Shown one piece after another: positions 1,461 to 53,900 of a stretch of 64,000 bases of DNA; position 1 is the stretch's first letter; every line of letters starts with the position of its first letter. Position numbers and translations under genes: made by a program. The notes under the pieces are model-generated. The model saw nothing but the letters and a program-made list of their open reading frames with translations. It made no database searches and was not told the origin of the DNA. This DNA comes from Chrysoperla carnea (lineage: Eukaryota > Arthropoda > Insecta > Neuroptera > Chrysopidae): the NCBI RefSeq assembly GCF_905475395.1, contig NC_058338.1:40087935-40151934 (forward strand). Direction: 5' to 3'.

Positions 1461-1501
1461 CAATAGTAAATGAAATTCAGATTCACTAAAAATCACTAAA
1501 T

Positions 1502-1820
1502 AAAAAAACATTTAACAAAAAGAAAACCGACTTCGAAAGAAAAACTTTTCCAAAATAAATTAATATGCACTAAAAAGTAAAAAAATTATTTATAATATGT
1601 AAAATGATTGTTATTCTTGGAGTCGGTGTCATACAAGGAAACAACTCTGACAGAACAGTTTACCTTTACTACATTGGCTTGGCTGACACCGACTTCAAAA
1701 ATAACAATAATTTTAACTACATTATATTATAAATTATTTTTTTACTTTTTAGTGCATATTAATTTGTTTTGGAAAAGTTTTTCTTTTGAAATCGGTTTTC
1801 TTTTTGTTAAATGTTTTTTT
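1502..1820. repeat. Fold-back (inverted-repeat) element
   Basis: The left arm at 1502-1631 and the right arm at 1685-1820 are inverted copies over about 130 bp, separated by a loop of about 53 bp. Both arms share the 'aaccgacttc/gaaatcggtt' segment, the 'ttagtgcatattaatttgtt' segment and the 'gacaccgact' segment next to the loop. An open frame at 1608-1832 is only the arm and loop read through. The structure suggests a fold-back MITE or two opposed copies of a repeat end. Confidence 0.75.
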
Positions 1821-2339: not shown

Positions 2340-5300
2340 ATGAGACGAGCATCAAAAAGAGTTTCAAAAACAGTCAAATATGAGGAGAAAAATTCATCAG
2401 ATTCATCTGATGATGATGAACCGGTTGTTAAATCCAAGAAAAAAGTTTCACCTAGTGCTCCAAAAATATCAAAAACGAAGACAGTAGAATTTTTAGATGA
2501 TGAACCGGTTATTAATACTAAGAAAAAGCATGTACAATCACCAAGTTCTTCAAAAAATGAAGATGATGGTTCATCATCAGATAGTAGTGTTGGTGGAAAT
2601 TTTAAAACAACCGATAATATTGATTCTATTTCATTTTTTGAAAAATCTAATGTAAGTAACACGAAAAATGATTCATTGGATATTCCAAAAGCACTTAGTG
2701 ATTCCGAAGATTCTGATTTGGAAGATGTCCCTGTCAAAACTAAAGAAGAAGTAAAGAATGATGTTTTTCGAGAAATTGAGGATTATCAAAAAAGACTTGA
2801 TGATGCTAAACAAAAAATGATGAATTTCAATAAAAAATTAACACCAAATGAACAGTTATTAGACGTTAAAGAACTTCTTAAAATGGGTGAAACCGGTGTA
2901 GATGAATCAAGTCAAATATTCGACACAGATGAAGAAGTTGATTCTGAATTTGAAGAAGTAGAGCACGCAGTTGACAAACCCTCAACGTCAACTTCAGTTC
3001 CTGAACAAGGTGTACAAATTACCGTTGAAATACCTAATCAATCAAGGTCTAAAAGTAAAAAAGAAGTTGATATGATGGCAGTTATAAAACGTAAAATTAA
3101 TCGAGTTAAAAAAGAACATCAAGTTTATATTCATCGAGTACATTTACTTTGTTGGATTGCGCATGGAAATTATGTAAATACAATTCTAAATAATGAAAAT
3201 TTATTAGGTCTAGCTTTAAGTTTAATTCCTGGTGAGAAATGTTATCCTGATGGTCGTATTACGCTAGCCTATTTGGAACAGATAACAAAATGGTATTCAA
3301 AAATTTTTAAAATAAAACCTGAACCAGAAAATCGTACCATTCAAGAAATTTTAAAAGATTTACCTTTAGATAGAGCTTTGAAATTAGATATAAGTCGGAA
3401 AGAAGCATCCTCGCGAAAAAATCACGTTTTAATCTTTGTTTGTATGTTAAGGGCACTAGGTATACAGTGTCGTTTAGTACTTTCTTTTCGAGTTGTACCT
3501 CTACGACCACTTCAAAGTGAGTTGTGCTCGCTATCCACTAAAAAACAAGAATTACCAAAAAAAGTAGAAAATAAGGAAATAAAAAAATTAAACAACGCCT
3601 TAAAAGATTTAAATAAAAAGAAAAATTTGAAAACCAAGTCATTGAGCGTAAAAAAATCAATTTTTTTTGAAGATAAATCGAAATCTAGTGAATTACCAAA
3701 AATACCACAGGTAGATGGGGCAAATGACATTACACCCAACATAGCTCAAACGCGTCAAACAAGAGGAATGAGCAAAAATTCAAAACCAATTAAAATTCAA
3801 ATCAATGATGTATCGTCGGGTGATGAGTTTCAAGAAGAGAAAAAAACTGCAAAAGCTCCAAGAAAATCACTTTCTGATTTACTTAAAAAACGCACACCAG
3901 ATAAAAAGAAAGTTGATACAAAAACACGCAGTAAGTCAGCTTCGGAATCTACAAAGAAAACAAATCGCACACTTACACCAAATCAGAGTAAGCTATTAGA
4001 GACATCGTCAACTAATAAACGCGCTAAAACGCGGTCTTTAACACCCGAAGTTTCAAAACCTGAAGAAAAATTGGAAGAACGCAAAGCTAGAAGGAAGTCT
4101 CCAGCTACTAATCTTGAAGCCAAAAAGTCTTTAAATAATGAAAAAACCCCAACGCGAAAAATAAGTAAGGATTCAAAATCACATAGAACAACCGTTACTC
4201 AAAAACAAATGAAAGAACAAACACCACTAACCAATGAAGAGAAGTTATTAAAATCCCAAGGAGTTAAGCCTTCAAAATTATTGACGAATGAAGAAAAGTT
4301 ATTAAAAGCTCAAGGACTTAAACCTCGAAGTAAATCGGCTAGTAACGTTAAAAACACAACAACGTCGAAAAAGCAGACAACAGCTCAAAAACCATTGACT
4401 AATGAAGAGAAGTTATTAAAAGCTCAAGGAATTAAGACACGTAGTAAATCAGCTAGTAATTTAAAAAGTCCATTTTTCGATCATAATACCACTAAGTCTC
4501 CATCAAAACATGTTGCTCCTAAAATCTCAATAAGACCTAGAACAAATAAAATGAAAAAATTATCGGAACCTCTTAGTGATGATGATAGTGAATATCTTTC
4601 AGATGAAGCTATACCAAAGAAGAAAAAGAAATCTAGTAGTGATGATGAATTTGACATTGAAACTAAAAATAAGATTAAGTCGAAGGTAAATCAGTTGAAA
4701 AAAAGTATGGACAGGAGAGTACTATCGACAGACGATGATGAAGATGATAAGGATAAGAAGAAAAAAAGAGTAGGTAATGATATTTGGGTTGAAGTTTTTG
4801 TTGAAGAAGAGGAAAAATGGATTAGTGTCGATGTTGTTAAAGGACAAGTACATTGTGTGCAAGAATTACACGTAAGTTTCTGTTTACTTATAGTAAATAT
4901 GATTACTGGTAAAAACCTTCCTTAGTCATTAAATTAAAAAACAAATACAAAACTGCACTGTTACAAATATTTTACATTAATAAAAGGTATAACATAATTC
5001 AGGCATCGCAATGCCTAAAGCCCCTAGAGCTGGGGCCACCATTAGCTTTTCGGCCTACTACTCAGAGTTGGGTGAGGCTAAGAAGTCTCATTTTTTCAGA
5101 ACAACTATGATTCCTGGTAAAAATCAAAAAGTTTCAATTTTCGTTGATTACAGAATATATTGGAAAAAATTTTTAAAAATGACGAATAAGTCCTGAATCT
5201 TGATTAAATTGCTGTAAAAATTGGTTGAATATATTGAATAAATTTTGAACTGGGATAATTTTTGACTGAATTCAATCAAACAGATCTAAACGGACGCGTC

Positions 5301-8015
5301 CAAAATTATCCTATATATAGAATTGCAATTTTTGTTAATTTTGTGCCTCTAAAATTTTTAGACTCGAGCCACACAGCCTGTAATTTATGTGGTTGCTTGG
5401 AATAATAATGGAACGCTAAAAGATGTTACCAGTCGGTACAGTAAAAATTGGAATACAGTAACAAGGAAATTACGTGATGATCCTACTTGGTGGAATCGAA
5501 CGTTAAAACCTTATCAAGAAAAGAAGAATGCTCGAGAAAAAGAAGAAGATGAAGAATTAGCTCGACAACAATTAGATCAACCATTACCTACTGCTATTTC
5601 TGAGTTAGTAGTTTTAATGTTTTCGATAGTAAGGATACTTACTATAAGTTTAGTTAAAAATTTTTAATGGTAGACATTTGGATGTTAAACAAAAGTGTCC
5701 ACTTAATCTGTACCTCAAAAAAAAAGGTTTTCGAAAAAGCATCTATTTGTAAATCGGTTGTAAAGGCTTCCATTGATCGATTTAATTTTAAAAAAACACG
5801 ATTAAGTATTGTAAAATGATATATTTTTATAATGTATACATGTTTTGTTTTCATTTTCAATACTAGATGCCGGACGTGACCACCTACTTTGATAAATAAT
5901 TGTAAAACCTTAAAAGTAGTTTTACCGATATTTTTGATTTCCAAAGATTTCAACTGATTTTAATCTTCTCAAACGAAGAATAAAGAATTTTCAAAAAAAC
6001 TCCATTGTAAATCATTTGCAGAATTAAGTGGTTACGTCCTAGTATTGAAAATGAAACAAGTACATGTATGCATTGTATATACTGCAGTCTGGTCGCATTT
6101 AAGATGAAGACATCCTCATATTTTCATTATTTGTAGGAATATCTATTTAAAATTTTGCACAATCATACAGGATGATGGATCACATTTTTTAAGATCCTTA
6201 ATCGAAACTGAACTTTAAACTCAGCCTACTAAAAATTGACAAATAGTCCCGACTTAATATTTTACCTAGCGTCAGAGATGGTTAGAGATATCAAACAAAA
6301 ACTATTGGAAAAAGTTGCTTAGAATATTCTGTATTTTCATAACAAAATTCCCATTTTTTAGTTTTTTCATTATTTCGGTCTTTATACCAAAAATTATTAG
6401 AAGTTTATTGAAATATTTGAATTATATATTGAACTTCTTATTATATAATTATCTCTTGTTCATAACTTTTTCAGATATAAAAATCATCCATTGTACGCGT
6501 TAAAACGACATTTATTAAAATTTGAAGCAATATATCCTCCTGATTCACCAACATTAGGCTTTGTACGAAACGAACCTGTTTATGCTCGTGAATGTGTACA
6601 TACATTGCACTCAAGAGAAATATGGGTCAAACAGGCTCGTGTAGTGAAACCATTTGAAAAGCCTTATAAAATTGTGAAAGCACGCCCAAAATATGACCGT
6701 TTAACAGGTACTGTTACAACTGATATACCGTTGGAAATATTTGGTATATGGCAAACGAAAGATTATGAACCACCAGTAGCAGAAAATGGTGTGGTTCCAC
6801 GAAATGCGTATGGAAATGTTGAATTGTTTAAGATGTGCATGTTACCAATTGGAACAGTTCATCTTCAATGTAAGTGATTTTATTTTCTCTCACTTTGTTA
6901 GTGATATTAAAATGTTTACATACCTATTTTATTATTACGATGCATTCTCATTAATTTCAAATTTTGAATGGTCTTCAATACGAATAAATCGTAAAATAAA
7001 AGTAATTTTTACTGATTAATATCTATTAGCATCGTTTCAAAATTTGAATGGATTTTAAATATAATAAATTGTAAACTCAATTTTCGATTAATTCCGATTT
7101 ATTAGGACGGTTTTAGTCCAATAAGATAGAGAAATCGAATAGTCGCGATTAATACATAAATAGTGGCTCTAATAACATATACATACGATTTTCTGTTAAT
7201 ACTAATCATCAAACGATACTTGTCTAAATTTGGTGACATATTTCGCCATTGTTTTTAAGATTCGAAGTTCCAGTGCTTCCCAATTCACTCTCACTGGACC
7301 ATTTAATTACAATTCATGCAATTTTACTATCTGCGCTCAACGTATGACACGAAACATTGCCTAGGTGAAAGAGCAAATAGAGTTACTAAAGCACTGTGAC
7401 TAGATATCGGAAAGATGTTTTTAAAATAAGCTATTAGACTAACGAGTCAAGAAAATCAAAGCTTAGTATTTGTACTTATTGGAATCTCTTATTTTCAAAG
7501 ACGAATTATTGCTATCAGAAATGTAAATGAACTCAATATGCTCATGAATATGTTCCGTGTTTTTTAGTACCAGGATTGAACAAAGTTGCTAAGAAATTAA
7601 AAATCGATTGTGCACCTGCAGTTGTTGGATTTGATTATCATAGTGGAAGTTGTCATCCAACTTTCGATGGATTTGTTGTTTGTGAAGAGTTTAAAGATGT
7701 TTTACTTGAAGCTTGGGAACAAGTAAGATTATTTATAATCGAATGCTAAATGACTATACCGAAATTCAATTTTCAATTTTTTTTTAGGATCAAATAGAAA
7801 CAGAAAAAAGAGCACGTGAAAAAATTGAAAAACGTGTATATGGTAATTGGCGTCGTATAATTAAAGGTCTATTTATTCGAGAACGTTTACAAAAACGATA
7901 TGATTTTGGTGGAGATAAAGAAGATGAACCTCCTGCTGGGACATCAAAGAAAAAAGGTTCTTTAAAAGTGGCAGAACGAAAACGTAGAATTTGTAGTGAT
8001 ACCAGTGATAATTGA
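2340..8015 (+). CDS. Xpc: XPC/Rad4 homolog, nucleotide excision repair damage sensor
   Basis: This protein recognises helix-distorting lesions in global-genome nucleotide excision repair in the nucleus, normally with Rad23 and centrin. Five coding exons are read: 2340-4871, 5362-5603, 6475-6869, 7568-7722 and 7788-8015. All junctions are GT-AG and in frame, giving 1183 aa. Residues 1-240 are acidic and low complexity. About 245-385 form the first half of the transglutaminase-like domain (LLRALG-type segment near 370). About 386-815 are a Lys/Ser-rich insertion. WVEVF near 816 opens the second half. BHD1 (HPLYALKRHLLK), BHD2 (WQTKDYEPPVA, VPRNAYGN) and BHD3 (VGFDYHSG, VCEEFKDVLL) follow. The tail is basic. 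Exon 1 stays open past its donor to a stop at 4923, but the family sequence resumes exactly at 5362. AATAAA signals lie at 8056 and 8089. Domain order and motifs make the call secure. Confidence 0.96.
4221..4465 (+). repeat. Internal triplicated motif in the XPC linker
   Basis: Within XPC exon 1, the 11-residue motif TNEEKLLK(A/S)QG occurs three times, near residues 631, 649 and 687. The second and third copies are followed by RSKSASN. Nucleotide similarity between copies is high, indicating recent tandem duplication inside the Lys/Ser-rich linker that interrupts the transglutaminase-like fold. Confidence 0.9.
5828..6080. repeat. Fold-back element in XPC intron 2
   Basis: The arms at 5828-5883 and 6027-6080 are inverted copies. 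Both contain 'cattttcaatacta' (or its complement) flanked by 'gtatacatg'-like and 'gtgaccac/gtggttac' sequence. Nothing coding lies in between. It looks like a decayed fold-back MITE. Confidence 0.6.
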
Positions 8016-9225: not shown

Positions 9226-9540
9226 CTCGCCAATGTTATGGTTATATTGGCTGTCCACGAAGGACACACTTAGGCTATATAGCCCATTGTGATACTTACT
9301 ATATGTGTTTTACCACTTTTACCGCTGATAATTTCATTTATCAGCTCCTCAATTATTTTCAGAGACTGAGTGCACTTCCTTCATGCATACGCCATGCACT
9401 ACACCAGCCCATCACAACTATTAATTAAATTAATTTTTGTTGTGACGGCGGGAATCGAACTCGCTACCCTAGGCATACCGCGGACGCAATTGGTTACGCC
9501 TTAACCAACTGACCTACTAGGTTTAACTCGTCAATGTTAT
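9226..9540 (-). mobile_element. tRNA-derived SINE, copy 1, with target-site duplication
   Basis: The element runs on the minus strand. Its tRNA-like head at about 9430-9526 has an A-box-like 'ggtcagttggttaaggcg' and a B-box 'gttcgattccc'. The body and tail run down to 9240, ending in 'ggacagccaatataacc'. Flanks at 9226-9239 and 9527-9540 match at 13 of 14 positions (ctcg[c/t]caatgttat), a target-site duplication typical of LINE-driven retrotransposition. A second copy lies at 40841-41130. Confidence 0.88.
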
Positions 9541-9867
9541 ACTACCTTAAAAAAAATAGATATAGGCAAAAATATTATATAAATAATGAAATTATTGTAC
9601 ATAAACTCATAGTATATATGATTATTAAAATTATAAAAATATTTTTCCCACGCGTGATAATTACAATTTAAAAAAAATTCTTATATATATATGCCGTTCA
9701 AATAAAAATCTAAAAGATAATGCGATATTATTTAAATAAAGAATATTAAAAATTTGCCGTTCTTAACTGATATAATGAAAAGATTCTGATATTATAAACA
9801 TTTCCGCTAAGATGCGTTCAGTCCGTTTCTGCATGCAAAGAATAGTCATAACACGTCACTCCAAATG
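9541..9867. other. Intergenic, no gene seen
   Basis: AT-rich spacer between the SINE and the next repeat. No open frame, RNA gene or clear repeat is supported. Confidence 0.45.
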
Positions 9868-10180
9868 GTAAGTAATCAGGTGGTCTAAATTAGAACTACT
9901 GAAAAAGCGGTCCACTTCCTGTTTAATAGTACAAATTTTTATCGCCAGTTGGCTGTTTTTCATGTAAATTTAATGGTTTTTCTAAACTATAAATAAAAAC
10001 GGCAATGACTTCAGCACAACGTTTTAGCAACACCACCGCATGGAGAATTGATAAAATAACATGCAGAATGATAAATGGTTTGTCTAATTATAATCGTAAT
10101 TTTCTATAGAAACCAACTGGAAAATGTAAATTAGCATGATTCCGATTGGCTTACAGTCTCCACGGGTGTAAATAAGTCAC
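9868..10180. repeat. Interspersed repeat family, copy with both modules
   Basis: The first module (9868-9940) is about 85-90% identical by eye to 12668-12740 and contains 'actactgaaaaagcggtcca'. The second module (9975-10180) matches 52243-52452, sharing 'ggtttttctaaact' at one end and 'gattccgattggct' near the other. Neither module encodes a protein. This copy joins the modules, so they probably belong to one non-autonomous element. Confidence 0.75.
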
Positions 10181-11491
10181 TGTCTTTTTTTTATTCAAAA
10201 ATATAACTCTTTTTACATTATATCACATACACTTCAATTGGGCTTCAACTAACTGAATCGAATGTAGTGAACATTTTTTGATTTGGATATTGTTTCATTG
10301 TCCTTGGGGGCATTGAAATTTCTCAAATATTGTTGTAAAACAAATTAATAATAATATAAAATCAGTAATGAAGTATATTACAAACAGAAAAAAAAAATTT
10401 TTGCTGAATATTAAACATCTTCTACATTTTAAGCCACCCATTCTTGAAGTACTCTCAAAATTTCGCCCTCTTAAATTTTATATCGAGCCCATTTTCACGT
10501 AAAATGCATTGTTTGGGAATTATATTAAATAGAATGAAAAAAGTTCGATTTTTCAAGATTTTTGTCAAACAGTACAAAATAATAAATTCGATGTTATAAA
10601 CCATGGATTATTTTCTTCCTTCAATCATGTAATTGACCTGTTAAAAAATATCAACCACCCCACAACTATATTACAACGATATAATTATTTTGTACTGTTT
10701 GTATTGTTTTAAACTTAAGAAAGGCTAAAATACCACTCACGCTAATCAATCATATATTTTCCTATGGTTTTATCATTCAAATTTATATTTTGTATTGTAT
10801 TTTAAAATTCCATTATCATATTGGGAAGATAGTAACATAGTTTTTTATTGACTTAGGATCTTAGTATATCTGCATAATTTCAAATCGTGTTCAACCACTG
10901 GGAAAATTGTTGAAAATTGAATTCCATTACATTCACACATAGATTTATAGACAACTCGGTTAAGTTAATAAAGTTTGTTAAGAAGAAAAGACTAAAAGCA
11001 AAAGGAATTTAAAAAAATAAAAATAAAAGATATATTTAAAAGATATAATTTGAATTATTTACATAAGAACAACATAATAAAGAAATATAAATTGAAATTA
11101 TACAATTAACTTGCATGAAAAATAATATAATTATTTTATGTATAGTACGATATATTTTTTATTGGAGAAAACTTTAGGCATTTGCCACAACCTCTCAGTA
11201 ATTTTCCAATCAATTTCAATATTATTATTATTTTAGAACAGAATTTGAGGCTATAATTATTCTTCTAACTGGAATTATATAATATGTTGTAGTTTAGGAC
11301 GCAACAACTGATACGATGACATATATTCATTCATTTATCAAATTGACATTGTGACCTCGAACCGCAATCGAGCTGTAAAATTTTTGTTGTCATCTCTCAC
11401 CGAATAATATTTTGTTAGAAAATTCTTTTATACAATTTTTGGCATTTAATTTTTTAGTTATCAACAAGATGATTTGTTTTTAAATAAATAT
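10181..11491. other. Intergenic / USP46 3' flank, no gene seen
   Basis: AT-rich sequence downstream of the USP46 stop. It probably includes the USP46 3'UTR. The nearest clear minus-strand AATAAA (plus 'tttatt') noted is near 11157, about 330 bases past the stop. Confidence 0.4.
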
Positions 11492-14400
11492 CTATACATA
11501 ATCCTTTGACTGATAAAATAAAATGTACCCCGTTTCTGATGATTTTTGTATGTCGGACGTTAATCCATAAAAGTCTTCAATCGTGGACGCGTCAATTTTC
11601 TGTAAATATAAATAAGATTAAATATTAGATATGTTTCTTATACAAAGGACATTCCAATAACAAAAGTTTTAATTTCTGGTTTGTTATTAAGTTTTAGTTA
11701 CTGGCTGTTTTTACCATAGAGCGAGCTGTATAGGCATAAGAAACGCAATAAGTGAATCGCAGAGAAAAAGACAAAACCTATAGACATTTAACCACCCCTC
11801 TCTTGTTGGGTTGAGTGGATCAGTGAATGAACGCAATCACAGAGTTAACCAAAAAGCCAAAAATCCGCAGATCCATGCCAGCTCGACCATACTAAAGGCA
11901 AGGCCAACCCATGGACCAGTGAGTGAACACAGTCGCAGGATTAACATCAGTTGTTTTGGTACCGGATTGACTTTATGTGGAGTTGTATTGACCAGAGTTA
12001 TTGAATATCAAGTTATTCCAGACTGTACTCCCCCTTATATGTATTAAGCAAACTATTTAATCTAAATTTCCTAGTTCAACAAAAATAGATTAGTAACTTA
12101 CATCAACCATATCATCATCAAACAGCAACCAAAATCCATGACTTTTAACAATACTTATATAGTGCCCCCTGTTTGGTCCACTTCCACAATGTATGACAAC
12201 CGATACCAAATCGTATAATCGATCTGGATTGACAGCATGATCCGATGTATTAAAAAGTCTTAACTCTAATGGAAATACAACACGATGTGATACTTTAATA
12301 TGCCTATTATATTGTTCCATATATTTAAAACGTTTTAAATGTAATGCTAAAATCATTGGTAATTTTTTAACTCTCATACGTTTCTGTGCTTCTTGATAAC
12401 TACAACAGTTATCACACTTAAATTTATTATCACCACACAGTGTCTCTGTATTACTAAAACATCGTAGACAATGCGTTATACTTGTATTTTGATCAATATC
12501 CACTTGTAAATCAAAAAAATCTTCATCTTTACTACTAACTGTTTCACAACATAAACAACGTGTTTCACTTGTTAAAATACCCTGTAAAATACAGAAATTG
12601 TATGTGTTAATGCAATAATTCAAGAATACCGAAATAATAATCGTATTTTAAAATAAATTGATAAATAGTAAGTAATCAGTTGGTCTAAATTGGAACTACT
12701 GAAAAAGCGGTCCATTTCCTTTATAATAGTACACATTTTTTGTGTCTTTAAAAAATTATAAGTACAAGTAATGCCATCTGTTTAAATTGTAGCTACTGAA
12801 TTCGGGTGTTCTTCTGATTTTAATAAGTACGAATTATTATAGCCAGTTGTCGAGTTGCAACTCTGTAATTCGTATAAGTCTAGTTGTAGGTGAAAATAGT
12901 GCATGTTGATATAAAAAAATTGATCGGTTGGACTTAATACTCTTTTTTGGCTTTTAGCCAATAATTCGGAAAATAAAGTCACATGCTCATTATCAGTTAC
13001 CCGGAGTTTGTTTATAAATAGAGTTTAACAATAGTTACGCGTGTGCAAATAAAAAAATTGAGATATTTGGGTCTTGAAAAATGATTTTTGATACTTATAA
13101 AAAAAATCAATCTGCGCATGCTTCGCAGTCTGTACCGTTTTAATATGGTGGCATCTTAATTTGATATTGTAGCAAAATTGTCACTAGAGAAATGCTGTAA
13201 ACAATAAAGTTTTGTCGGCTAGATTTTTTAACCCTCAACACAAAAAGAGGTTTGCGTTAAGTTTGACCACTATTAGTGTCTTTCTATAACATTATAGCTC
13301 TTAAACGGATGAAACGATTTTATTTTTTGTTTGTTTGTAAGGTATTACTTCATTGAGAGTGTTCTTAGCTATGTTCGTTAAAAAATCGGTCCAGTTTGGA
13401 GAGAGCTACAAGAAAGAATTCGCATTTGTCGAGGGTATATTAAATTTTGTTAATTGCCTCGATGATTCCACAGTTGATGAAGGTAAGTCGGTGATCTTTG
13501 GGTAAAAAATTGTACCTTTTTCTGCCAAAAATAAATGTTTTTCGGTTGTTAGCATTAAAAACACATTTTGACTCGTTCTACTAGGGGAAAGAAATTGTAG
13601 AAAACCATCGATTGACGATTAGTGTAGGTTTTGAACTTGAAGCAATCCTTTTTAGTGGATAATTAAAAAAGTCGATTTTTGCAATTCATTTATTTCAATT
13701 ATTCGTGTGTTAATTTTTAGAATTCCATATTTAATAAATTTTAACTAGTTATTATGAGTGCTCTAATTGTAAAATCACCGGAAAGCATATGGTAAAGGTA
13801 CCCCAAAAGGCTGAGGGTATACGCTAGATATAAACTAGGAATGGAGTTTTCTAAGTTTCCAATCAACAAAACAAATCTCTAGATTTCTTTATGAATATAA
13901 GAAATTTTTTTTCATCTCTTAGTCTTGGCAAAGGATTTTGAAAAGTGTGAAATTTTTTATTTTATTTTGATACCTCTTTTTGGATTTATATTGTCGATTT
14001 TTATTAACATAGTATGGGAATTTAAGCTGTTTTTTGTTAAAATATAAATAAAATTTAATTTTGTAAATTCCTTGAAAATTTTTCATTATTTTAAATAATA
14101 AATGAAAGTTTCAGCTGATCCATACATATATGGGCATTTTTTAGAGTGATTCTCTTAAAATAATTTTTTTTTTTTTTTTTTTTAAATAGAACATGTTACA
14201 AATTAATAGTTTGTTTACACTTGTAATTCAAGTACTGTTTGGATTCTTTCCTTATTGTTGTTAAAATTCTTTATTGTTAAAATGATGAATTGAAGCTAGT
14301 TTTTTTAACTTTAGTATAAGGTTTCCAAACGTCAAACGTAGCACAGGACTGCCGTACGTCCTTAAATGAGCTGGCGGAACAAATGAATGTAAACCTGGTA

Positions 14401-16167
14401 TGGGTACCGGGATGCAAAGATATTCCAGGAAATTGTTAAGCCGACGAGCTCGCCAGAAATGGCATAATGCTGCCGGACACAAGCATCAATAAATATCCGG
14501 GAGTTCCATTTGCGAACTGCAAATTACTCCTGAAAGAGGATATCCTGAAAAAGGCCAATCTTAGATGGAGGGAAGAACGTACCTGTGGTACTACAAGACA
14601 GATATGGTCTAAGTACAATCGCAGGCGTTCCGAAGTTCTCATATCACTTCCAAGGGCCTCTGTTCGCAAAGTTGTTGCGGCTATCACAGGACACTGGCTG
14701 GACGGCAAGCATGCTGAACGCTTGGGCCTGGCAGTGTATCACGACTACTGCAGGAGCTGTCACAGTGGTGACGAGGAGGAGACAATGTCTCATCTTCTCT
14801 GTCACTGCCCAGCTCATGTCATGAGGAGATGGACTTACTTGAGCCAGCCTCTCTTTGACGACCTCTCAAAGCCCTCCTGCTGTTCTTAAACAGCTCCAAA
14901 TGGTTCATGGAGTAGTGGCCGGGGATGGGCCAACCCATTTACGGTATCACAACGGATCCTATGGTCTAAGTATGTCCCACCCCAGGACAGCCACTCTAAC
15001 CTAACCATAAGGTTTCCACGGCAATAAGAAAAGAATCCTAACTGTATTTGAATTACGAATTGGAAATTAGAGAATATAATTTTGAATTTAGCTGTTGTTT
15101 TGTATGTTCTTATTTGATTAGTACTATAAAAGTTGTTTTATTTTACTTACTTGAAAAATTTCATGAACCCATGTTGGCTCACTAGTTGAATTGGCACTAT
15201 CATTACTATTGCCATGTATTTTTATTTTAGATGAATGTTGCTGCCTTTCCGCTGAAAGAGTTAAGTATAATTAATTACTTGAAAAGGATAATTAAGATAA
15301 TATTTTTAAACTTTAATGTTTATTTTCTTTATTTATTGTTAACTGAGAACTGAATAGATAAGTAATTGTTCGGAAATTTACGAGATTGTACTGTTTTCAA
15401 TGATTCTAAAAACTATCTTCACGGTTTTGACTAACCGACAACGGGTTTAACTATAAATTTTGCATACTAATATAGATTAACAATAAATAATTAAAATAAA
15501 TTAAAAAATTTATTCACCTAATATTAATTCATTAATGTGATTTATTAAAAAATTTAAAAATTCATGAGCGTCTTGTTGCATATAGTTATCAAATTCCTCT
15601 GCAAGTAAAAAAAAAAAAGAAATTATTATAAAATACAAGGAAAAATTTATATGAAATAGTACCTTTTTCTTTTCGTAACCGTGCAATAAATTTTTTTGGC
15701 GCAATGGAACCTACTTTTTTCTTTTGTGTAGCTATACTATAAAATAAGTCTGCCAAGCATGTTAATAAAGTCTCTTTAGTTCGCTTATTTTTGGCCTTAT
15801 ATTCCAATACTTTTTCCCTGAATGGTTTACAAAAATATAATGCTTGTAATACTGAATTGCTGTAGCATGTATTCCCAAACTGAAAAATGAAACGATTATC
15901 GTTGTAAACAAACTAGACAAAATATTTAAGGAAATTTTAGGTTTTTTTACTTACATTGACTAAACCAAAATAATGCTCGTTCGGTGGAAATTGATCTGAA
16001 CCTATATCTCTTTCCAATTGTGAAATATTAGCGCCCTTTAATTAAGGAAAATGATTATTTATACATGTTTTTTAGATGAAATGGTTATGTTATAAATAAT
16101 AAACCAAATTATTTAAAACATTTGGTTATGGAACTACTAAAAAATAATTTACTAGATTACTTACCAT
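11492..16167 (-). CDS. Usp12-46: Ubiquitin C-terminal hydrolase USP46/USP12 homolog
   Basis: A cysteine protease of the USP (C19) family that removes ubiquitin; USP46/12 proteins work with WD-repeat partners such as WDR48/UAF1. Coding exons on the minus strand are 16165-16167 (ATG only), 15955-16035, 15663-15879, 15518-15598, 15151-15251, 12102-12581 and 11599-11492, all in frame, 356 aa. The Cys box [12 protein letters not shown] follows GLVN, and QQDAHEFLN follows. Two CxxC pairs of a zinc ribbon (CLCC and CDNC) are visible. The His box [17 protein letters not shown] and the FDDDMV segment end the large exon, and DFYGLTSD with YILFYQS closes the protein. Length and order match the family. 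The start is fixed by the MGxNxS N-terminus typical of the family, formed by joining the ATG to 16035. Intron 2-3 kb long between 12581 and 15151 holds a LINE fragment and other repeats. Confidence 0.96.
12668..12740. repeat. Interspersed repeat, partial copy
   Basis: Direct-orientation partner of 9868-9940, sharing 'gtaagtaatcag', 'ggtctaaatt' and 'actactgaaaaagcggtcca'. It lies in the large USP46 intron and lacks the second module. Confidence 0.75.
13229..13400 (+). repeat. Interspersed repeat family 'PF' (putative MITE), copy A
   Basis: The sequence runs 'aaccctcaac ... agtttgaccac ... aaacggatgaaacgatttt ... agagtgttcttagctatgtt'. The same order of phrases is found at 19130-19283 in the same orientation, and reversed at 43443-43640 and 54666-54872. 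The copies are non-coding. This one lacks the terminal 'gggttccgta' found in the others. Confidence 0.7.
14339..15006 (+). mobile_element. Non-LTR retrotransposon 3' fragment (RNase H and C-terminus), decayed
   Basis: The frame starting at 14349 reads an RNase H C-terminal segment with WVPG, DIPGN and ADELARN, interrupted by one TAA stop right after PGNC. It then continues through ITGHWL, a Cys/His knuckle (CRSC, then HLLCHCP) and LSQPLFDDL before a frame break near 14870. The 3' tail at 14954-15006 ends in 'actctaacctaacc'. Conserved-looking residues identify an R1/I/Jockey-type element in the LINE group; the exact clade is uncertain. It sits inside a USP46 intron in the opposite orientation to the gene. 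It is 5'-truncated and non-functional. Confidence 0.85.
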
Positions 16168-20700: not shown

Positions 20701-23700
20701 TTTTTCGCCTACAAAACAGTTTGAAAATTATAAAATGTTTTCATATAGTAGATGGTAGCTTTTTTCTTATTGTTATATAATTGCAATAATTACAAAGAAA
20801 ATAAATAAGTCGTATCTTGATAGATACGAAGTGATTAGACTAATTAATGAACGATGTTTTCATGGAATTACTATATAATTCCTGTAATAAACTTTTTTTT
20901 CCTAAAAAAATTTGTAGATACTTTTATATTGTTATAAAATTTTCCATCCCGATCTAACTCTCTCAATATTGTATTGAATCGCGTTAGTGTGAAGTTAGGA
21001 TCAATAAACCAATTTCTCAAGGCTACTTACACCATTTCCACTCTTCTTTTCTAATTTCGAAATAAAATCTTAAAAATCATCTAAAAATTGAAAAATATTA
21101 TTTTCTCAAGAATTCACGGAAGAGTAAAAAAACCTAAGGCGTATAAAAGTTTATACAGTACTTCGAAGTATTAACGGAGCGTATTTGTTTCTGGTTACGC
21201 TCGGATCATATTTGTAGATGCGAGTTGAAAATTATTTTAGAGCATTTTATAATTTAGAATAAGCTAAGATTTAAAATTTAGGTACCATAAACTTAGCTGA
21301 GATTCTCTGTATTGTTGTATTTTAATGTCTAATGTTTTTTGGAAAATTTGGTTCTGGATTCTAGTTTCATCTTTGTTCACATTGAAAATTTTTGTATTTC
21401 TTGGAGTTGGCAAAGGTGTAACTATTGACGATCCAGCATTCACTGTTATATCTTCATTATCTAGAAAAATAAAATCGGAAAGTTAAATTAGAATTAAGCA
21501 TCCTTTACTATAAACAAATTTTTCTTCAGAATAACAATGGTACTTTTGTTTTAAATAGATATACGCCATTTTCTTTTTTAATTATCTTTTTACGACCAAC
21601 GTCTAAACGTAAAAGCTAAGTCTGCAGAGTAAAGTCCTATCTATGCCCGCCTTAGCATACTACAAAATAAGAGGGAACACATTATCCACATTATATTTGA
21701 ACTACAGCGTGCTGACCATCTAGAAAATATTTTTACAATTATTAATAGAGAAATGCAAAAATATGTACCTGTAAATGGCTTTTGGATTGCTTCGTTTTCA
21801 TATCGTAGACGTTTCACTAAGTGCCATTCTACAGGTTGCATTAATATCATAGCGACCATTGTGTGTAAACTCAAAGCTGCTAAAACCATCATGGTACCAA
21901 ATTGTCCATAATATGATTTCATTTGTTGTATTATCATTGGAAACATAAAAGCAATTGCTGATATAATTGCTAAACATAAACTATTTATCATTCCCCGTTT
22001 TTTCGTAAAGTAATATGTAATGTTTGCAAATATAACTGGATTCATTAAGCCAAATCCAATACCTAAAAATATTAAAATTCATGTAATTTGGAAAACCTCG
22101 AAAAAAAATTCTGACACCTCGAATCTTTTCTGGTGTTTACGAACAACTTATAATTTGATTCTATTGTCTTGCAGGACCCAATATAGCTATTTAGCTGCTC
22201 CGGAAAAAATTATATTTGCCGTGCTTTACATTCATACCATATGCAGGGTATTAAATACATAGATTCCAATGGTGCTTTTTCTGTGTTTTATTTTATTTAT
22301 TAGTTATAATGAATTTTTCCATACAATCCCAGTTTTCGGAACATCCCTGGTCTTATTGAGTCCCGATTATCGAGATTACTTTATATAATATTCACCCCCC
22401 CCCCTGGATCGGACACTGCTGTCTTGTTGATATTAGTTACCTCAGAAAACTAATAAGTCAGCCAAAAGTTTTTTATTTTGCTATTAGTTGGTTATCTACC
22501 CAGGCGTATGTACAGATGATTATTCTACTTCTAGTTATTCTACTTGGGTAGATAACCAACTAATAGCAAAATAAATAAGTTTTGGCTTACTTATTCTTAG
22601 TCGGCAGTTTCCTGAGGTAATTAATATCAACAAGATAGCATCAGCAGTACTAAAAAGTCCTAGTTGTTCTTGGGTCAATACCCAAGTCTGGTTTCTGATC
22701 TTCGCTCAAGCCTAAGTGCAAGTAAAATAAGTAGAAAAGTAAAAAGAAATCAGTATACCGCATTTTTATGGTAATTAGATTTTATCCGAAACGACCTATT
22801 TAATAATGATTACGTATACTAGTCAGTTTTTAGATTTATTTAGTTTGCCAAAACCGAGGTTTGAGTCAGTATATGTGCTTACTTACTATTCTGAATTTTC
22901 AGTCTTCTGAATTTATTTACCACTCACAATGAAGGAAATAAAATTAGTTTAGTTGAAAACTTTAATAAATAACAGTACCTACCTTGTAGACATCCATAAG
23001 TAAATCCTAGTTGATAAATATTTCCCACATAAATGTTGAGGAAACTTCCAGAACAATATATAAATGATCCAATAATTCCAACGCCTCGAGGTGGGTAGTC
23101 GGTTAATACTTTATTCGTAATTAAACCTAATTAAATTTGCAAATGTTAATTTGTTACATACAGCAATCATTTGTAATTAGTTAAGAGGCTTGAAAGTTAT
23201 AGGCCAAAATTTGCCTCTGAAATTAATTTATCCATCCATTTTTTTCAGTACGAAAACGAAAGCTGGATGAACATCCAAGCAAAAAATTCGTGTTAGGAGA
23301 TAAAAAAGGTAATGAAAAAATTGGGTGAATTATCAAAATAATTTTGGCCATTGGAAAGGGCTCCTAAAGGTACAACATAAATAAATAATTTTTATTGTCC
23401 TGTAAAATTTAATGCCAGAAAGTGTAGGGTACTTTTTCTAAGTGATATCACTATATGATAAATGATATCACTAAAAGTATATTTTACTTTCTTCATAAAA
23501 ATTCATTCTTTAAAAGGATAAAATTGGAGATGAAAGTTTATATAAAACTCTGTAATTTTGGTGGTGAAAAGAGGATCATTATTTGTATGAAAATGCGTCA
23601 TTTTTGAATTAACTACTTATTATTAACCGATTTTAAAAATTATTTCACCTATAATAAGTAACAATGCAGAGTTTCTGAGATATCGCAATATTTGGATCGA

Positions 23701-39440: not shown

Positions 39441-40840
39441 TATAAAATTTGACGCCAATCAAGGAATGATTTCACGCTAATCAAAAATGTGTAAGTATAG
39501 AACAGTCTTAACGAAGTTAGTTACTCTCTTTATTTGTCGCAGTGCTTGTTTATATAATGATCATAACTTTAAAACGTAATCAAAAAGTGAAATTACTATA
39601 AACGGGAATTAGATGATTAAAATAATTATTGAGAGACAATTTATATGTTCTTAAGCACTGTAGTTACCAATACCTAAGACAATATGACATATTCATGGTT
39701 CTATTCACATTACATTACCATATCTATATTATATAAATTAATTTTATAAAATCACAGTGTTAGTTTGTACCAACGGAATGCAACTATACTTGATATAATG
39801 TTTTAATATTGGTTATGATTAAAATCTGAATATGTGAATTTGAATAATACACATTTCTAACTCTAAAAATAGGCGGGAAGCTACTGTTAACAGCCAGACT
39901 CTGTTAATTTTGGTACAAATACGGTCAGATTATGATGTATTAAATCGTATCCTTGGAATATGTAACGTCTAATCGAATTATTCGAAAAATATTTGCCGTA
40001 CAGGTTGTGAAAACATATAATAACATTACTTTTGGCATACAGGTAGAAGATGGCTTTGTCGATTTAAGTCCAAATGCACCCACTTTTTAATTTTTGAAAG
40101 AAATTAAGGATCGTTTAAAGTTATAAGGATCTTTCGTCCTACATAGGTATACCAATGAATTTGCACTGTTTAATATTTCCATAATATTAATAGGTATAAT
40201 AAGTCGTAATTCGATTCTACGTTCCAAGTTTGAGAATATGATTTAAAAAACTCAAACGTAATTTTTTGCAGTTAAAAAACTCAGCTCAAAGTCTAATTTA
40301 AACTTAATTTCATATTACAACATGGATGTATGAATATACCTAATGTACATTACATGTTATGTAAATTAGCTAACCAAATAATTATTAACAGTCGAAATAT
40401 TGACATCCAATTAAAAATTCCTAGGTCATCGGGCTTTTTCTTATTATTTTATGGTTCAAAGTTGGCTGAAAAAATGATGAATCATATAGGTTATCTTTTT
40501 CAATTGGATATTTCTATCAAAAAATCACAGTGTGATAAAAAAATTATGTAAAATATTTAGACAATCTTGCAGTTTATAATAATGCCATAAAAATATAAGG
40601 TTGCCGATGATATAAGAACAAAATTTTAATTTAATCGAAGTTCCATCATTTGATGAACAGAGACTATAGTTAGAGTATTGATGATTGAAGAGTCATATCT
40701 ATATTATCAAATTTATAAGCATCACTTGCACACAATATATTATATATTTTTGTAGTTGCGTGGTATTGTAAAGCTAAAAATAACTCATTACTTGACTACA
40801 AAGCATGTATTTGGTTTATATGTATGTACCGGTCAAAGTT
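39441..40840. other. Intergenic, no gene seen
   Basis: AT-rich. The short open frame at 40330-40551 has no family resemblance. Confidence 0.45.
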
Positions 40841-41130
40841 TAGGTTAGGTTTGGTTAGGTTATATTGGCTGTCCACGAAGGACACACTTTGGCTATAGAT
40901 CCCATTCTGATACCATATATGTGTTTTACCACCTTTCCGCTGATAATTTCATTTGTCAGCTCCACAATTTTAGAGGCTGAGTTCACTTGCTTCATGCATA
41001 TACCATGCACTACACCAGTCCATCACAAATATTAATGAAATTAATTTTGTTGCGATGGCGGGAATCGTACCCGCTACCCTAAGCATACCGTGGACGGAAT
41101 TGGTTACGCTTTAGCCAACTGAGCTCATTT
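40841..41130 (-). mobile_element. tRNA-derived SINE, copy 2
   Basis: Minus-strand SINE with head at about 41040-41130 (A-box-like 'gagctcagttggctaaagcg', B-box 'gggtacgattccc'), the same body as the copy at 9240-9526, and a longer tail containing repeated 'aacctaacc' at 40841-40860. No clear target duplication was found. It lies 0.8 kb upstream of the DUF4789-like gene. Confidence 0.85.
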
Positions 41131-41821
41131 GTAGCCCGAAAAGTATCCTCTTCGATAGGAGGACAAAATTTCACACTTTATTTCGAAATTAATATTTTCC
41201 TTAAGGATATTTTTGCACTAGGATATTTTTAACGAAAACACTTTGAGTAGGATATTTTAATAGGTATGCGACCAGTTTTTTCCGATTTAAGTCCGCTGTT
41301 CTTCATTAAAAACATCGGATGTTTTGAGGAAGTCTCCTTGTATAGAATGCGTTAAATCGAAATATGTATATTATATTAAAACAAAATAACCTTGTATTTC
41401 TGAATTAGCATTTTGTTTGAAGGTTTTTATTTGAAACGTTTTTATTTAATTTCTATAATATGTTTTCACAGTGAACGACTTTAAAAATTAATTTTATTCA
41501 TTGAAAGTTTAGGAATTGCCTTTATAAGAGATAAGAGTGTCTGTATAAAAAAAATCAGTCAATATAATTTATTTTATTATAGTTAAAAGCAGCGCAAAAA
41601 GGTCATGATCGTGGATCTTGGCAGCAGTAAAAAGATATTTAAATACAATATTAGATAAAATATAAATTACAATTTGTGTTGTTAGTGAATGTTATTGCAA
41701 AATATTTTGTTATTCTTCTCTTATTTAAGTAAATATGTGATTAATCAATTATTTCTACATTGCAGTGCAGTGCGCGCGGTGTTGATTTAATAATTTAAAA
41801 AAATTAAAAAAACAACTAATT

Positions 41822-50900: not shown

Positions 50901-53900
50901 TTGCGAGATATTTCTGATTTGGATTATTTAAAATGCAAAAATTCAGAAAACTTCTTTAGTCAGTCGATAGATTAATACGAAAAAAAAAAAAAAAAATTCA
51001 AAAAATTTCCAACTTGAAAGAAATCGAAATAATTTTGAGAAATCTTATTCCTTCGATTAATACCTGGAGAAAATAAAAATAAATTTTAAAAGACGTTTAC
51101 ACTGAGTTGAAATTTTTTTTTTTGATGCGTTTATCTTCGTGAATATTTCTCTGATCAACTTGAAATTTTCAGAGAATATACTAAAATATATGTTTATTTC
51201 GGAAATGAAAAAAATCGATTATGTGGAAATTTGAACTGGATATAACCCCTTATAAACTTATGAAGCCTCTGTCTTAAGTTTAAAATAGTGAAAATAGTGA
51301 TTTCTTATACTTTTCACTATTTCGTTTTTATAGAGCTGGTACGTAATTATTTAACTTGCCACCCCCGATCCACACTGTCGCGAAGTATCCCCATCAAGTA
51401 TACTCATCAAAGTTAGATGAAGTGAAGCACCCATCATCACACTCTCGCCTCACTTGGCAAGTGTCAGAACTTGGCAGAATCATAACATGTTATTACGATA
51501 TTATTACACAGAGCACAGTGGCCTATTTTATGACTAGGCGCAACCACTGGAGGCTTTGAAATTCTTACACACTTTTTTGCCAGTAATAGAAGCCTTCTTC
51601 TCTATCTTATACTCTTTCACCTCCACATGCTCCAACTTCGTCCAAAAATGCTTTTTTTTTGGTTTATTTAATTATGTTTGAACAGTCATTCACGAAAATT
51701 GTCAAACCATACTTATCCCAGGGTTCGACATAGCCGCCATACTTCCGAAAAAATGCTATTTTATATTAATGGCATATTTTTATCGGCATATTTTATCGGC
51801 ATTTAATTGATGGCATATTTTTATCGGAAAGTGTTTTCCAAGAAACAATTTACGAAAAAAAATATATAATTTTTTTTGCATTATAAAAAAAACAAAATGT
51901 GAACTATCATAAAATTTTTGTTTACGTAATTGGAAGTGAAGACAGTAACTTTCTTTCAAAATATTTATATATTCTGTCTATTAATATATTATATCGTCTC
52001 GCAATTAATTGATGAATGTAGGAGGCAGAGACATTGTTATTTTGAAAATTATTACTACTACAATATTCCGTACCTATATTATAATTTTTCTTATATACAG
52101 AGGCAGCTAAAGGCCTTGAGTGGGTGGTTTCTGTTAAAATTCACGTTTCTTTCCCGACTTAACAAATATTCATTTTGTCATTTGATAAAATGATATTTGC
52201 ATTTGATTTAAATTGATCAAGTATATTTTACAACTGAAAATGGTTTTTCTAAACTCTATTCAAACGACAGTGACGACAACACATCGCTTTCGTAACGCCA
52301 CCGCACAGACAAATGATATAATTACAAGAATAATGGTAAACAGTTTATCTATCACTATATTATAACGCCATTTTCCATATAAACAAGCCGAAAAATGTGA
52401 ATTTAGCTTGATTCCGATTGGCTCACAGCCTAAACGGGAGTACATACGTCACTACCAATAACAATTTAATATAACGATTAAAAAAATGGCATTATTAATT
52501 TTAAAAAAAAAATTAATAAAAAAATTACTTAAATATACTTTAAATGAATAATTATTTCATTTATATATGAATTTGTGGAAAAAAAATTAATGTAACTTCT
52601 TTATTTTACTACCCGTGGTATATTTATGATCAATTGGGCGTCTGGCGAAAGCATGGACAATAATTTATGATAATATTCTATTTACTTAAATAATAGCAAC
52701 GATTTTCAGTGCTAGGTCAGATTAAAAACTTGCACCACCTCCACCCCTCCCTTAAAATGAATCAAAATAAATAATAATAAGCTTTATAGCGCGGGAGCTA
52801 TTGGCCTTAAGAACCCCTTAAGGGTTGAAATGGGTATCTTTGGAAGTATATTAGTTTTAAAGGAAGAGTGACTGATATTGCTGGAAAGAAGGAATAATTA
52901 ATTAGAAATGATTTTTTTTTTTAATTTTAGTAAACGAATTGGAGTATGTCGAAATTTAGAAACTTGTCCAAATCCATCACAAATTTGGTGGCCCAGAGAT
53001 GAACGTTGCTATCAAAAACTTACTCGTGGACCATGCCCTGAAGGTCAGTTATTAATTAAAAATTCAGAGGATGAATTACCAACATGTGACTGTCGACATG
53101 ATAATAAAGACTTACAATTATATTATTGGAACCAAGGAAATTCGTGCCATGAGTTATATACACCTGGACCATGTACAACAAAAGGTCATTTATTTTTGCC
53201 GGGTGGAAAATGTGGATGTTCGGTAGACTTGCCGCATTTTCATAGGGAAACCTCACAGTGTTACAAACTAGGTAAGTGTACCATTTGTTTTGAAGATATA
53301 TAGAGTGAGATAGAGAAAAATCCGATTTTAGAAGCGCGATAAAACAAAAACTCATCAATTTTTAATTTTTTTTTCTACATATTAAAATGTATAAAAAATA
53401 ATTTAAGAAAATTAGGTAGATAAATAGAATTTTCAAGTATTATATGTATTTCTTTAAAACTTTAGGAGATATTGGACCATGCTCAGCGGGGCATCAATTT
53501 AAAATTGTTCCTGGAAATAACGAACTTAAAACTGGTCATGTTCGTGCAAAATGTGTTTGCAAAGAAGGCTACGTTTTCTGGAAAAGAGATGGAAAATGTT
53601 ATCGTCTTTATACCCAAGGTCCATGTGATCTAGGACAATTTTTAATCAATTCAACAAGTTGTATGAATGTGCCATGTGATAAAGGATATTTATATTTTCC
53701 TAAAGAAAGTACTTGTTACCGAATTGGTTCCCAAGGTCCATGTAACAATGGATATGTTGTTACGTTTGATTACAGTTCTCGACCATCTATCGATGGTATA
53801 TCATATCAAGGAACATGTGATTGTGCAATGGGTAAAGGATTAAAACAATGTCATGAATTAGCGAAAAAATCACATTGTGATCACGGAAAAGTGTTAATGA

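What the first reader, a model, noticed from the sequence alone, without database searches (positions are those of the whole stretch)
9240..15006. SINE and LINE share a homologous 3' tail: likely mobilisation pair
The LINE tail at 14954-15006 and the SINE tail (minus strand, 40902-40852, also at 9240) align over about 50 bp: GGATC, then TAT.G..., AAGT[A/G]TGTCC, then GGACAGCCA, then TAACCTAACC. Shared 3' tails are known to let a LINE reverse transcriptase mobilise a SINE (established for stringent-type pairs). Both a partner candidate and a SINE copy with a 14-bp target duplication are in one window.
Basis: partly seen in the sequence, partly recalled or inferred. Interest (0 to 1): 0.7.

Follow-up and report, generated by a model that had tools for sequence, protein, structure and literature searches.

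The report
Lacewing SINE borrows a LINE tail
A short mobile DNA element in what is probably a green lacewing carries the same 3' end as a longer, enzyme-coding element, including a small predicted RNA fold, so the short one was most likely copied by the long one's enzyme; this is a new example of a known kind of genomic parasitism.

Summary
The genome is probably Chrysoperla carnea. Consensus tails from 30 SINE and 30 LINE loci share 59 of 73 aligned bases. Without the (TAACC)n end, 48 of 60 are identical (score 53; best of 2000 shuffled pairs 33), while the bodies do not align. Duplications scoring 9 or more flank 17 of 30 SINEs and 13 of 30 LINEs; the window LINE is a 5'-truncated insertion with a perfect 12-bp one. 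The LINE family codes for endonuclease, reverse transcriptase and RNase H. The tail can form two hairpins: in the first the CUAU loop is shared and two stem pairs differ by double changes; in the second the stem is shared but the loops differ. Exact signatures number 1482 (5-nt loop) and 640 (7-nt loop), controls 0. All 18 sampled 5-nt-loop tails sit on SINE sequence, so no better partner was found, but the search was partial. Mobilisation is inferred; no intact reverse transcriptase of this family was seen in the capped list. All four places with exact 100-base TTAGG arrays are tails of these elements. Ordinary in kind: a new SINE/LINE pair.

The parts
9240..9526 (-). SINE copy 1 (tRNA-type promoter region, body, LINE-like tail); only one TAACC unit; 5' end approximate
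   Evidence: Sequence; tail found by a covariance model that was not built from this copy, 79.8 bits, E 2e-20
9226..9239 (.). target-site duplication of SINE copy 1, one side (14 bp, 13 of 14 identical)
   Evidence: read
9527..9540 (.). target-site duplication of SINE copy 1, other side
   Evidence: read
9240..9296 (-). shared two-hairpin tail in SINE copy 1
14328..15006 (+). 5'-truncated LINE copy: end of RNase H domain, C-terminus, 3' UTR, TAACCTAACC
   Evidence: Pfam RNase_H on the family
14316..14327 (.). 12-bp target-site duplication of the LINE, left (ATAAGGTTTCCA)
15007..15018 (.). 12-bp target-site duplication of the LINE, right
14943..15001 (+). shared two-hairpin tail in the LINE
   Evidence: 76.9 bits (this copy was in the model); alignment
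40838..41131 (-). SINE copy 2; tail repeat TAACCTAACCAAACCTAACCTAAAC; no clear target duplication
   Evidence: the 5' end is approximate
40858..40914 (-). shared two-hairpin tail in SINE copy 2
   Evidence: 75.3 bits (this copy was in the model)

Best explanation
This is a stringent-type SINE/LINE pair. The LINE (an APE endonuclease - reverse transcriptase - RNase H element) ends in a folded RNA tail: hairpin I (CUAU loop), a short linker, hairpin II (UGUCC/GGACA stem), GCCA and three bases, then (UAACC)n. The SINE is transcribed from its own internal A and B boxes and carries a copy of that tail. The LINE enzyme binds the tail of either RNA, nicks a chromosomal target, anneals or slips on the UAACC repeat and reverse-transcribes into the nick, leaving target duplications of about 13 bp. 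Shown here: tail homology, unrelated bodies, a common end point, two paired changes in hairpin I, target duplications of the same length, and the LINE's coding content. Inferred: that the RNA folds so, that the enzyme binds the tail, which loop it reads, and that SINE RNA was its substrate.
For: Consensus tails 59 of 73 identical with the repeat and 48 of 60 without; bodies score 17, at chance. Exact signatures in the genome: 1482 with a 5-nt loop and 640 with a 7-nt loop, 0 for each reversed control; 1057 with the repeat end required, 0 control. Double changes at columns 16-25 and 18-23 of hairpin I between SINE and LINE; 95.3% of cells paired against 90.9% in shuffles, and covariation 0.258 against 0.165, each with 0 of 500 shuffles as high; slid controls pair at most 46.8%. 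Hairpin II stem is the same while its loop differs, UUCGU or CACCCCA. Duplications scoring 9 or more in 17 of 30 SINEs and 13 of 30 LINEs, against 0 and 1 of 400 swapped pairs; median 13 bp for both. Endonuclease, RT and RNase H domains. A and B boxes and no TTTT in the SINE consensus. Divergence from consensus 3.7% (SINE) and 3.5% (LINE), best hits only.
Against: The loop of hairpin II differs in sequence and length, and for zebrafish L2 LINEs the loop is what the enzyme reads (PMC4176376, passages seen). No intact RT copy was seen: among the listed RT matches (capped list), 45 pieces have 54% identity or more, and their longest open frame is 520 aa. The paired changes amount to one split between two families. 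Two measures were not unusual (pairs changed on both sides, 67 of 500 shuffles as high; further pair types, 485 of 500), and related sequences can beat such shuffles without structure. RNAalifold's own consensus keeps pair 16-25 but leaves out 17-24 and 18-23. Four random substitutions on the stem keep all five pairs in 24% (transitions only) or 1.8% (any) of trials, with two double changes in 2.8% or 0.8%. The target-site consensus is too weak to show a common endonuclease: 8 of 17 SINE and 4 of 13 LINE duplications start with TA. Not all LINE families were examined.
Confidence: 0.8

Rival explanations
1. The SINE was driven by a close sister LINE, not sampled here or now lost, that carried the SINE-type UUCGU loop; the LINE in the window is only a cousin.
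For: Hairpin II loops and the three bases before the repeat differ consistently between SINE and LINE copies; loops are the recognised part in zebrafish L2 LINEs (PMC4176376, passages). No intact RT of this LINE family was seen (capped list).
Against: 18 of 18 sampled 5-nt-loop tails are on SINE sequence (by eye); 30 of 30 shown rows (25 places) of an open pattern belong to the two known classes; the nearest clearly separate RT family has a tail that does not match.
Confidence: 0.13
2. The SINE took its 3' end from the LINE long ago, but its spread used another machinery that only needs the UAACC repeat or a general 3' end.
For: Both families keep the pentamer repeat, and copies with a single unit exist (9.2-kb SINE).
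Against: About 50 nt upstream of the repeat are kept alike in both families, with the stems still pairing, which is hard to explain if only the repeat mattered; neither of the two other families whose 3' stretch was fetched ends in TAACC.
Confidence: 0.05
3. Chance or convergence: two unrelated elements happen to end in telomere-like repeats.
For: The (TAACC)n end alone is simple sequence.
Against: 48 of 60 identical outside the repeat, score 53 against a maximum of 33 in 2000 shuffles; 2122 exact genomic signatures in the two classes against 0 in controls.
Confidence: 0.01

Closest known systems
Eel UnaL2 / UnaSINE1 and zebrafish ZfL2 LINEs (L2 clade, stringent type)
   Same: LINE 3' tail with a stem-loop and a short tandem repeat (TGTAA in UnaL2), read by the LINE enzyme, and in the eel shared with a SINE (PMC4176376 passages; PMC3747384 passages)
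   Different: Here the LINE has an RNase H domain, two hairpins are proposed, and the repeat is TAACC. No assay exists. The L2 sequences were not compared.
Aedes aegypti Gecko SINE with I-clade LINE tails (MosquI and relatives)
   Same: Insect tRNA-type SINE with the tail of a LINE; the only pair listed under protostomes in the 2013 table (PMC3747384 Table 1, first part of the tables section read)
   Different: Other insect order; the Gecko sequences were not compared here; the clade of the present LINE was not determined.
Maize and sorghum SINE / L1 pair (ZmSINE2, LINE1-1_ZM)
   Same: Shared hairpin whose loop is kept while the stem changes by compensatory mutations (PMC3747384 passages), as proposed for hairpin I here
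   Different: Plant L1 clade, one hairpin described, other tail.
Helicoverpa HaSE1 / HaRTE1.1 and Plutella PxSE5 / PxLINE1 pairs
   Same: Insect SINEs whose tail matches a LINE of the same genome (PMC3272025 and PMC8010984, passages)
   Different: HaRTE1.1 is RTE-like and ends in TGA repeats; no hairpin evidence was in the passages seen.

Membership tests
Stringent-type SINE/LINE pair | Common 3' sequence beyond the simple repeat | tested here: met
   48 of 60 identical, score 53 against shuffle maximum 33
Stringent-type SINE/LINE pair | Homology confined to the tail and ending at the same point | tested here: met
   Bodies score 17 and 16, shuffle mean 18.9; both end in (TAACC)n
Stringent-type SINE/LINE pair | Conserved stem-loop in the tail | tested here: met
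   Two hairpins predicted in both consensuses; double changes at two pairs of hairpin I. RNAalifold's own structure keeps only one of these two pairs.
Stringent-type SINE/LINE pair | Same loop in both partners | tested here: inconclusive
   CUAU loop of hairpin I the same; loop of hairpin II different
Stringent-type SINE/LINE pair | LINE protein mobilises SINE RNA through the tail | not testable with these tools
   Needs an assay
SINE with tRNA-type Pol III promoter | A and B boxes near the 5' end, no internal TTTT | tested here: met
   A box at 3 and B box at 58 of the consensus, no TTTT (box motifs recalled)
SINE with tRNA-type Pol III promoter | Recognisable tRNA gene at the 5' end | tested here: not met
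   ARAGORN 0 of 30 loci; Rfam on 8 of these loci gave only partial matches to tmRNA models, in 7 of 8. A tRNA origin is inferred from the boxes alone.
APE-type LINE with RNase H (I/R1/LOA group, name recalled) | Exo_endo_phos_2, RVT_1 and RNase_H domains | tested here: met
   PF14529 8e-11, PF00078 5.1e-21, PF00075 1.4e-10 on pieces of L081
APE-type LINE with RNase H (I/R1/LOA group, name recalled) | Placement in a clade by RT phylogeny | not tested
   No reference set at hand
Telomere-targeting LINE (SART/TRAS-like) | Insertion into TTAGG repeats | tested here: not met
   Target duplications found are ordinary, varied sequences

The most novel reading that the evidence does not exclude
The (TAACC)n tail is the C-strand of the ancestral insect telomere repeat, in a species reported to lack TTAGG telomeres. 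The LINE may descend from an element that primed on TTAGG chromosome ends; after the telomere repeat was lost in this lineage, the LINE and its SINE passenger were left as the carriers of the only exact 100-base TTAGG arrays found in the assembly.
Probability: 0.05. Interest if true: 0.75.

Novelty: new member of a known kind. Interest (0 to 1): 0.42.

Why it matters
The 2013 table of SINE/LINE pairs lists one protostome pair, a few moth pairs have been described too, and none for lacewings turned up in the one search aimed at them. The double changes in hairpin I and the free loop in hairpin II make a testable proposal of what the enzyme reads. In practice, over a thousand exact tails end in the insect telomere motif, and every place with an exact 100-base TTAGG array in this assembly is such a tail, so interstitial TTAGG signals here should not be read as old telomeres without a check.

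Tried and rejected
Telomere origin of the repeat: of 10 chromosome-end stretches of 2 kb, 2 read N and 8 hold no TTAGG; on the other strand two of the 8 hold scattered CCTAA (5 and 3 units). The starts of C5 and C6 were not fetched. An exact (TTAGG)20 occurs at four interstitial places only (27 overlapping matches); all four are SINE or LINE tails by eye. Shorter or degenerate arrays were not surveyed. Chrysoperla carnea is reported to lack TTAGG telomeres (PMC12564400, abstract and passages).

Better LINE partner: the RT family at 44% identity (L102, L103) ends in TCATAC repeats with a score of 19 against the SINE tail, reached by 38 and 31 of 500 shuffles; a 30% family (L104) shows an A-rich end and a score of 16, reached by 239 of 500. 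Stretches taken where the 3' ends of two diverged relatives (61% and 54%) should lie (L128, L127) showed no tail.

Covariance model outside the two families: no hit in L102, L103, L104, L127, L128 at E up to 1; one weak window hit, 15.6 bits and E 0.037 at 7961-8003, taken as chance.

Outer stem GGU/GCC predicted by RNAalifold: no double change supports it, so not claimed.

tRNA identity of the SINE head: not settled.

TA at the target site as a common endonuclease mark: looked at and dropped (8 of 17 and 4 of 13).

Literature searches: no report of this pair in the listings; subscription journals and Repbase are not held, so this does not show that it is unpublished.

Full report
The window is G000:C2:40087935-40151934 of a 559-Mb assembly. 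Four of contigs C1-C6 match the chromosome sizes printed for Chrysoperla carnea inChrCarn1.1 (139.98, 100.74, 77.48 and 76.43 Mb); the other two are close (C3 94.12 against 94.41, C6 38.56 against 38.62) (PMC10116181, one passage and the outline seen; contig lengths). I take the species to be the green lacewing C. carnea; this is inference.

The observation. A search with the 40.8-kb SINE gave 2403 candidates, of which the 40 best were scored; one with the LINE 3' end gave 4410, again 40 scored. Majority consensuses from the 30 best loci of each share 59 of 73 aligned bases. With the TAACC repeat removed, 48 of 60 are identical, score 53, against a mean of 18.9 and a maximum of 33 in 2000 dinucleotide-preserving shuffles; the bodies without their last 70 bases score 17 and 16, which is chance. 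In the window itself the LINE tail matches the two SINE tails with scores 54 and 35; a slightly shorter LINE piece scores at most 26 against 1264 other stretches.

Genome-wide, the exact signature CTAAGTGTGTCC-loop-GGACAGCCA occurs 1482 times with a 5-nt loop and 640 times with a 7-nt loop, with no match for the reversed control. Listed 5-nt loops are mostly TTCGT and listed 7-nt loops mostly CACCCCA; only the first 100 or so places of each are listed. I fetched the upstream sequence of 18 listed 5-nt-loop tails, chosen to include odd loops, one of them from the list: 18 of 18 show SINE sequence by eye, some truncated or with internal deletions. An open pattern with both hairpins and spacing left free gave 2648 overlapping matches, control 0; 30 of 30 rows (25 places) whose letters were shown fall into the two classes.

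Insertion anatomy. The window LINE is a 5'-truncated insertion, 14328-15006, between perfect copies of ATAAGGTTTCCA (14316-14327 and 15007-15018). The 9.2-kb SINE has a 14-bp duplication with one mismatch; the 40.8-kb SINE has none that I could find. Across loci, duplications scoring 9 or more (length less 2 for a mismatch) occur in 17 of 30 SINEs and 13 of 30 LINEs, against 0 and 1 of 400 swapped flank pairs. Among these, lengths do not differ (median 13 and 13, P 0.90). The duplication starts with TA in 8 of 17 SINEs and 4 of 13 LINEs, too weak to claim a common endonuclease. Duplications of this kind are what target-primed reverse transcription leaves.

The LINE. The longest copy read, L081, carries pieces of endonuclease (PF14529), reverse transcriptase (PF00078) and RNase H (PF00075) domains, and the same tail at 4007-4065. 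A shorter copy, L076, is 91.5% identical to it over 1064 bases. A search with its RT (1102 candidates, 150 scored) listed 45 pieces at 54% identity or more, with no open frame longer than 520 aa: as far as seen the family has no intact copy. One further overlapping piece is at 50%. The next family, at 44% RT identity, has frames up to 1059 aa but a different end: TCATAC repeats, and a tail score of 19 that 31 to 38 of 500 shuffles reach. Its 3' UTR contains a CTAAGTG string after a possible hairpin, but the covariance model does not find it, so I claim nothing from it.

The fold. The SINE tail folds with hairpins GGGCU-CUAU-AGCCU and UGUCC-UUCGU-GGACA; the LINE tail with GGACC-CUAU-GGUCU and UGUCC-CACCCCA-GGACA. 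On 59 tails (47 distinct rows), 95.3% of cells are standard pairs (shuffle mean 90.9, 0 of 500 as high). Pair 16-25 is mostly G-C in the SINE and A-U in the LINE, pair 18-23 mostly U-A in the SINE and C-G in the LINE; the covariation score is 0.258 against 0.165 (0 of 500). Against this, the number of pairs changed on both sides (3; 67 of 500 shuffles as high) and the number of further pair types (11; 485 of 500) are not unusual, and RNAalifold's own consensus keeps pair 16-25 but leaves out 17-24 and 18-23. These are two double changes on one branch, not many events. Placing four substitutions at random on the stem keeps all five pairs in 24% (transitions only) or 1.8% (any change) of trials, and does so with two double changes in 2.8% or 0.8%. 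Hairpin I thus looks like a conserved loop on a changed stem, as reported for maize L1/SINE tails (PMC3747384, passages), and fits zebrafish L2 experiments in which stems could be swapped but loops could not (PMC4176376, passages). By that same rule the different loop of hairpin II is the main point against an exact pairing; either hairpin II is needed only as a stem, or a sister LINE with UUCGU was the true driver.

The repeat. (TAACC)n is the C-strand of the insect telomere repeat. Eight readable chromosome-end stretches hold no TTAGG; two of them hold scattered CCTAA units. An exact (TTAGG)20 is found at four interstitial places; each abuts a LINE tail (L105, L108) or a SINE tail (L106, L107). 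Published work found no telomere motif for C. carnea and TTAGG absent by Southern blot (PMC12564400, passages). So in this assembly the exact 100-base TTAGG arrays are retrotransposon tails. The duplications found show insertion into ordinary sequence, not telomeric repeats, which speaks against a SART/TRAS-like element.

Verdict. The tail homology is certain. Historical mobilisation of the SINE by this LINE family, or by a very close relative, is likely (0.8) but unproved. In kind it is known: a 2013 table lists SINE/LINE pairs, with one under protostomes, Gecko in Aedes (PMC3747384 Table 1), and moth pairs have been described.

Noticed in passing
L075-L078, L080, L086, L090, L091, L097, L101 (5' junctions): 10 of 26 examined LINE copies that reach the linker between RT and RNase H (26 of 31 listed rows) begin within 2 bp of the same base (near CACTTCCAAAATCC), with flanks that do not match the LINE; three of them (also held as L033, L036, L047) have 14-15-bp duplications. 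This looks like a ~1.07-kb short form with a fixed 5' end, perhaps a second passenger of the same machinery.
   Followed up: partly
L067, L070, L072, L073 (contig ends): The printed end letters of four chromosome-end stretches carry the same satellite-like sequence (TCAAAATGTATACA(T/A)AGAGGTC..., on one strand or the other), a candidate subtelomeric repeat.
   Followed up: no
L109, L111, L112, L113: SINE variant with GGTATCACAAAGGTTCTCTATAGCC (one base off in L112) in place of GGTATCACAATGGGCTCTATAGCC; hairpin I is still predicted to form in a tail typed after it.
   Followed up: no
window 12093-12647 and 15592-15912 (minus strand): Reading frames that look like exons of a ubiquitin-specific protease flank the LINE, so it may sit in an intron on the opposite strand; named by eye from recall, no family search run.
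   Followed up: no
window 1500-1598 / 1724-1822; 22452-22502 / 22545-22595: Inverted repeats of 99 bp (96%) and 51 bp (94%) with short spacers, possible small DNA transposons.
   Followed up: no
window 10128-10181 and 52400-52453; L106: A dispersed repeat (GATTCCGATTGGCT..ACAG) occurs twice in the window and again directly upstream of a truncated SINE in L106.
   Followed up: no
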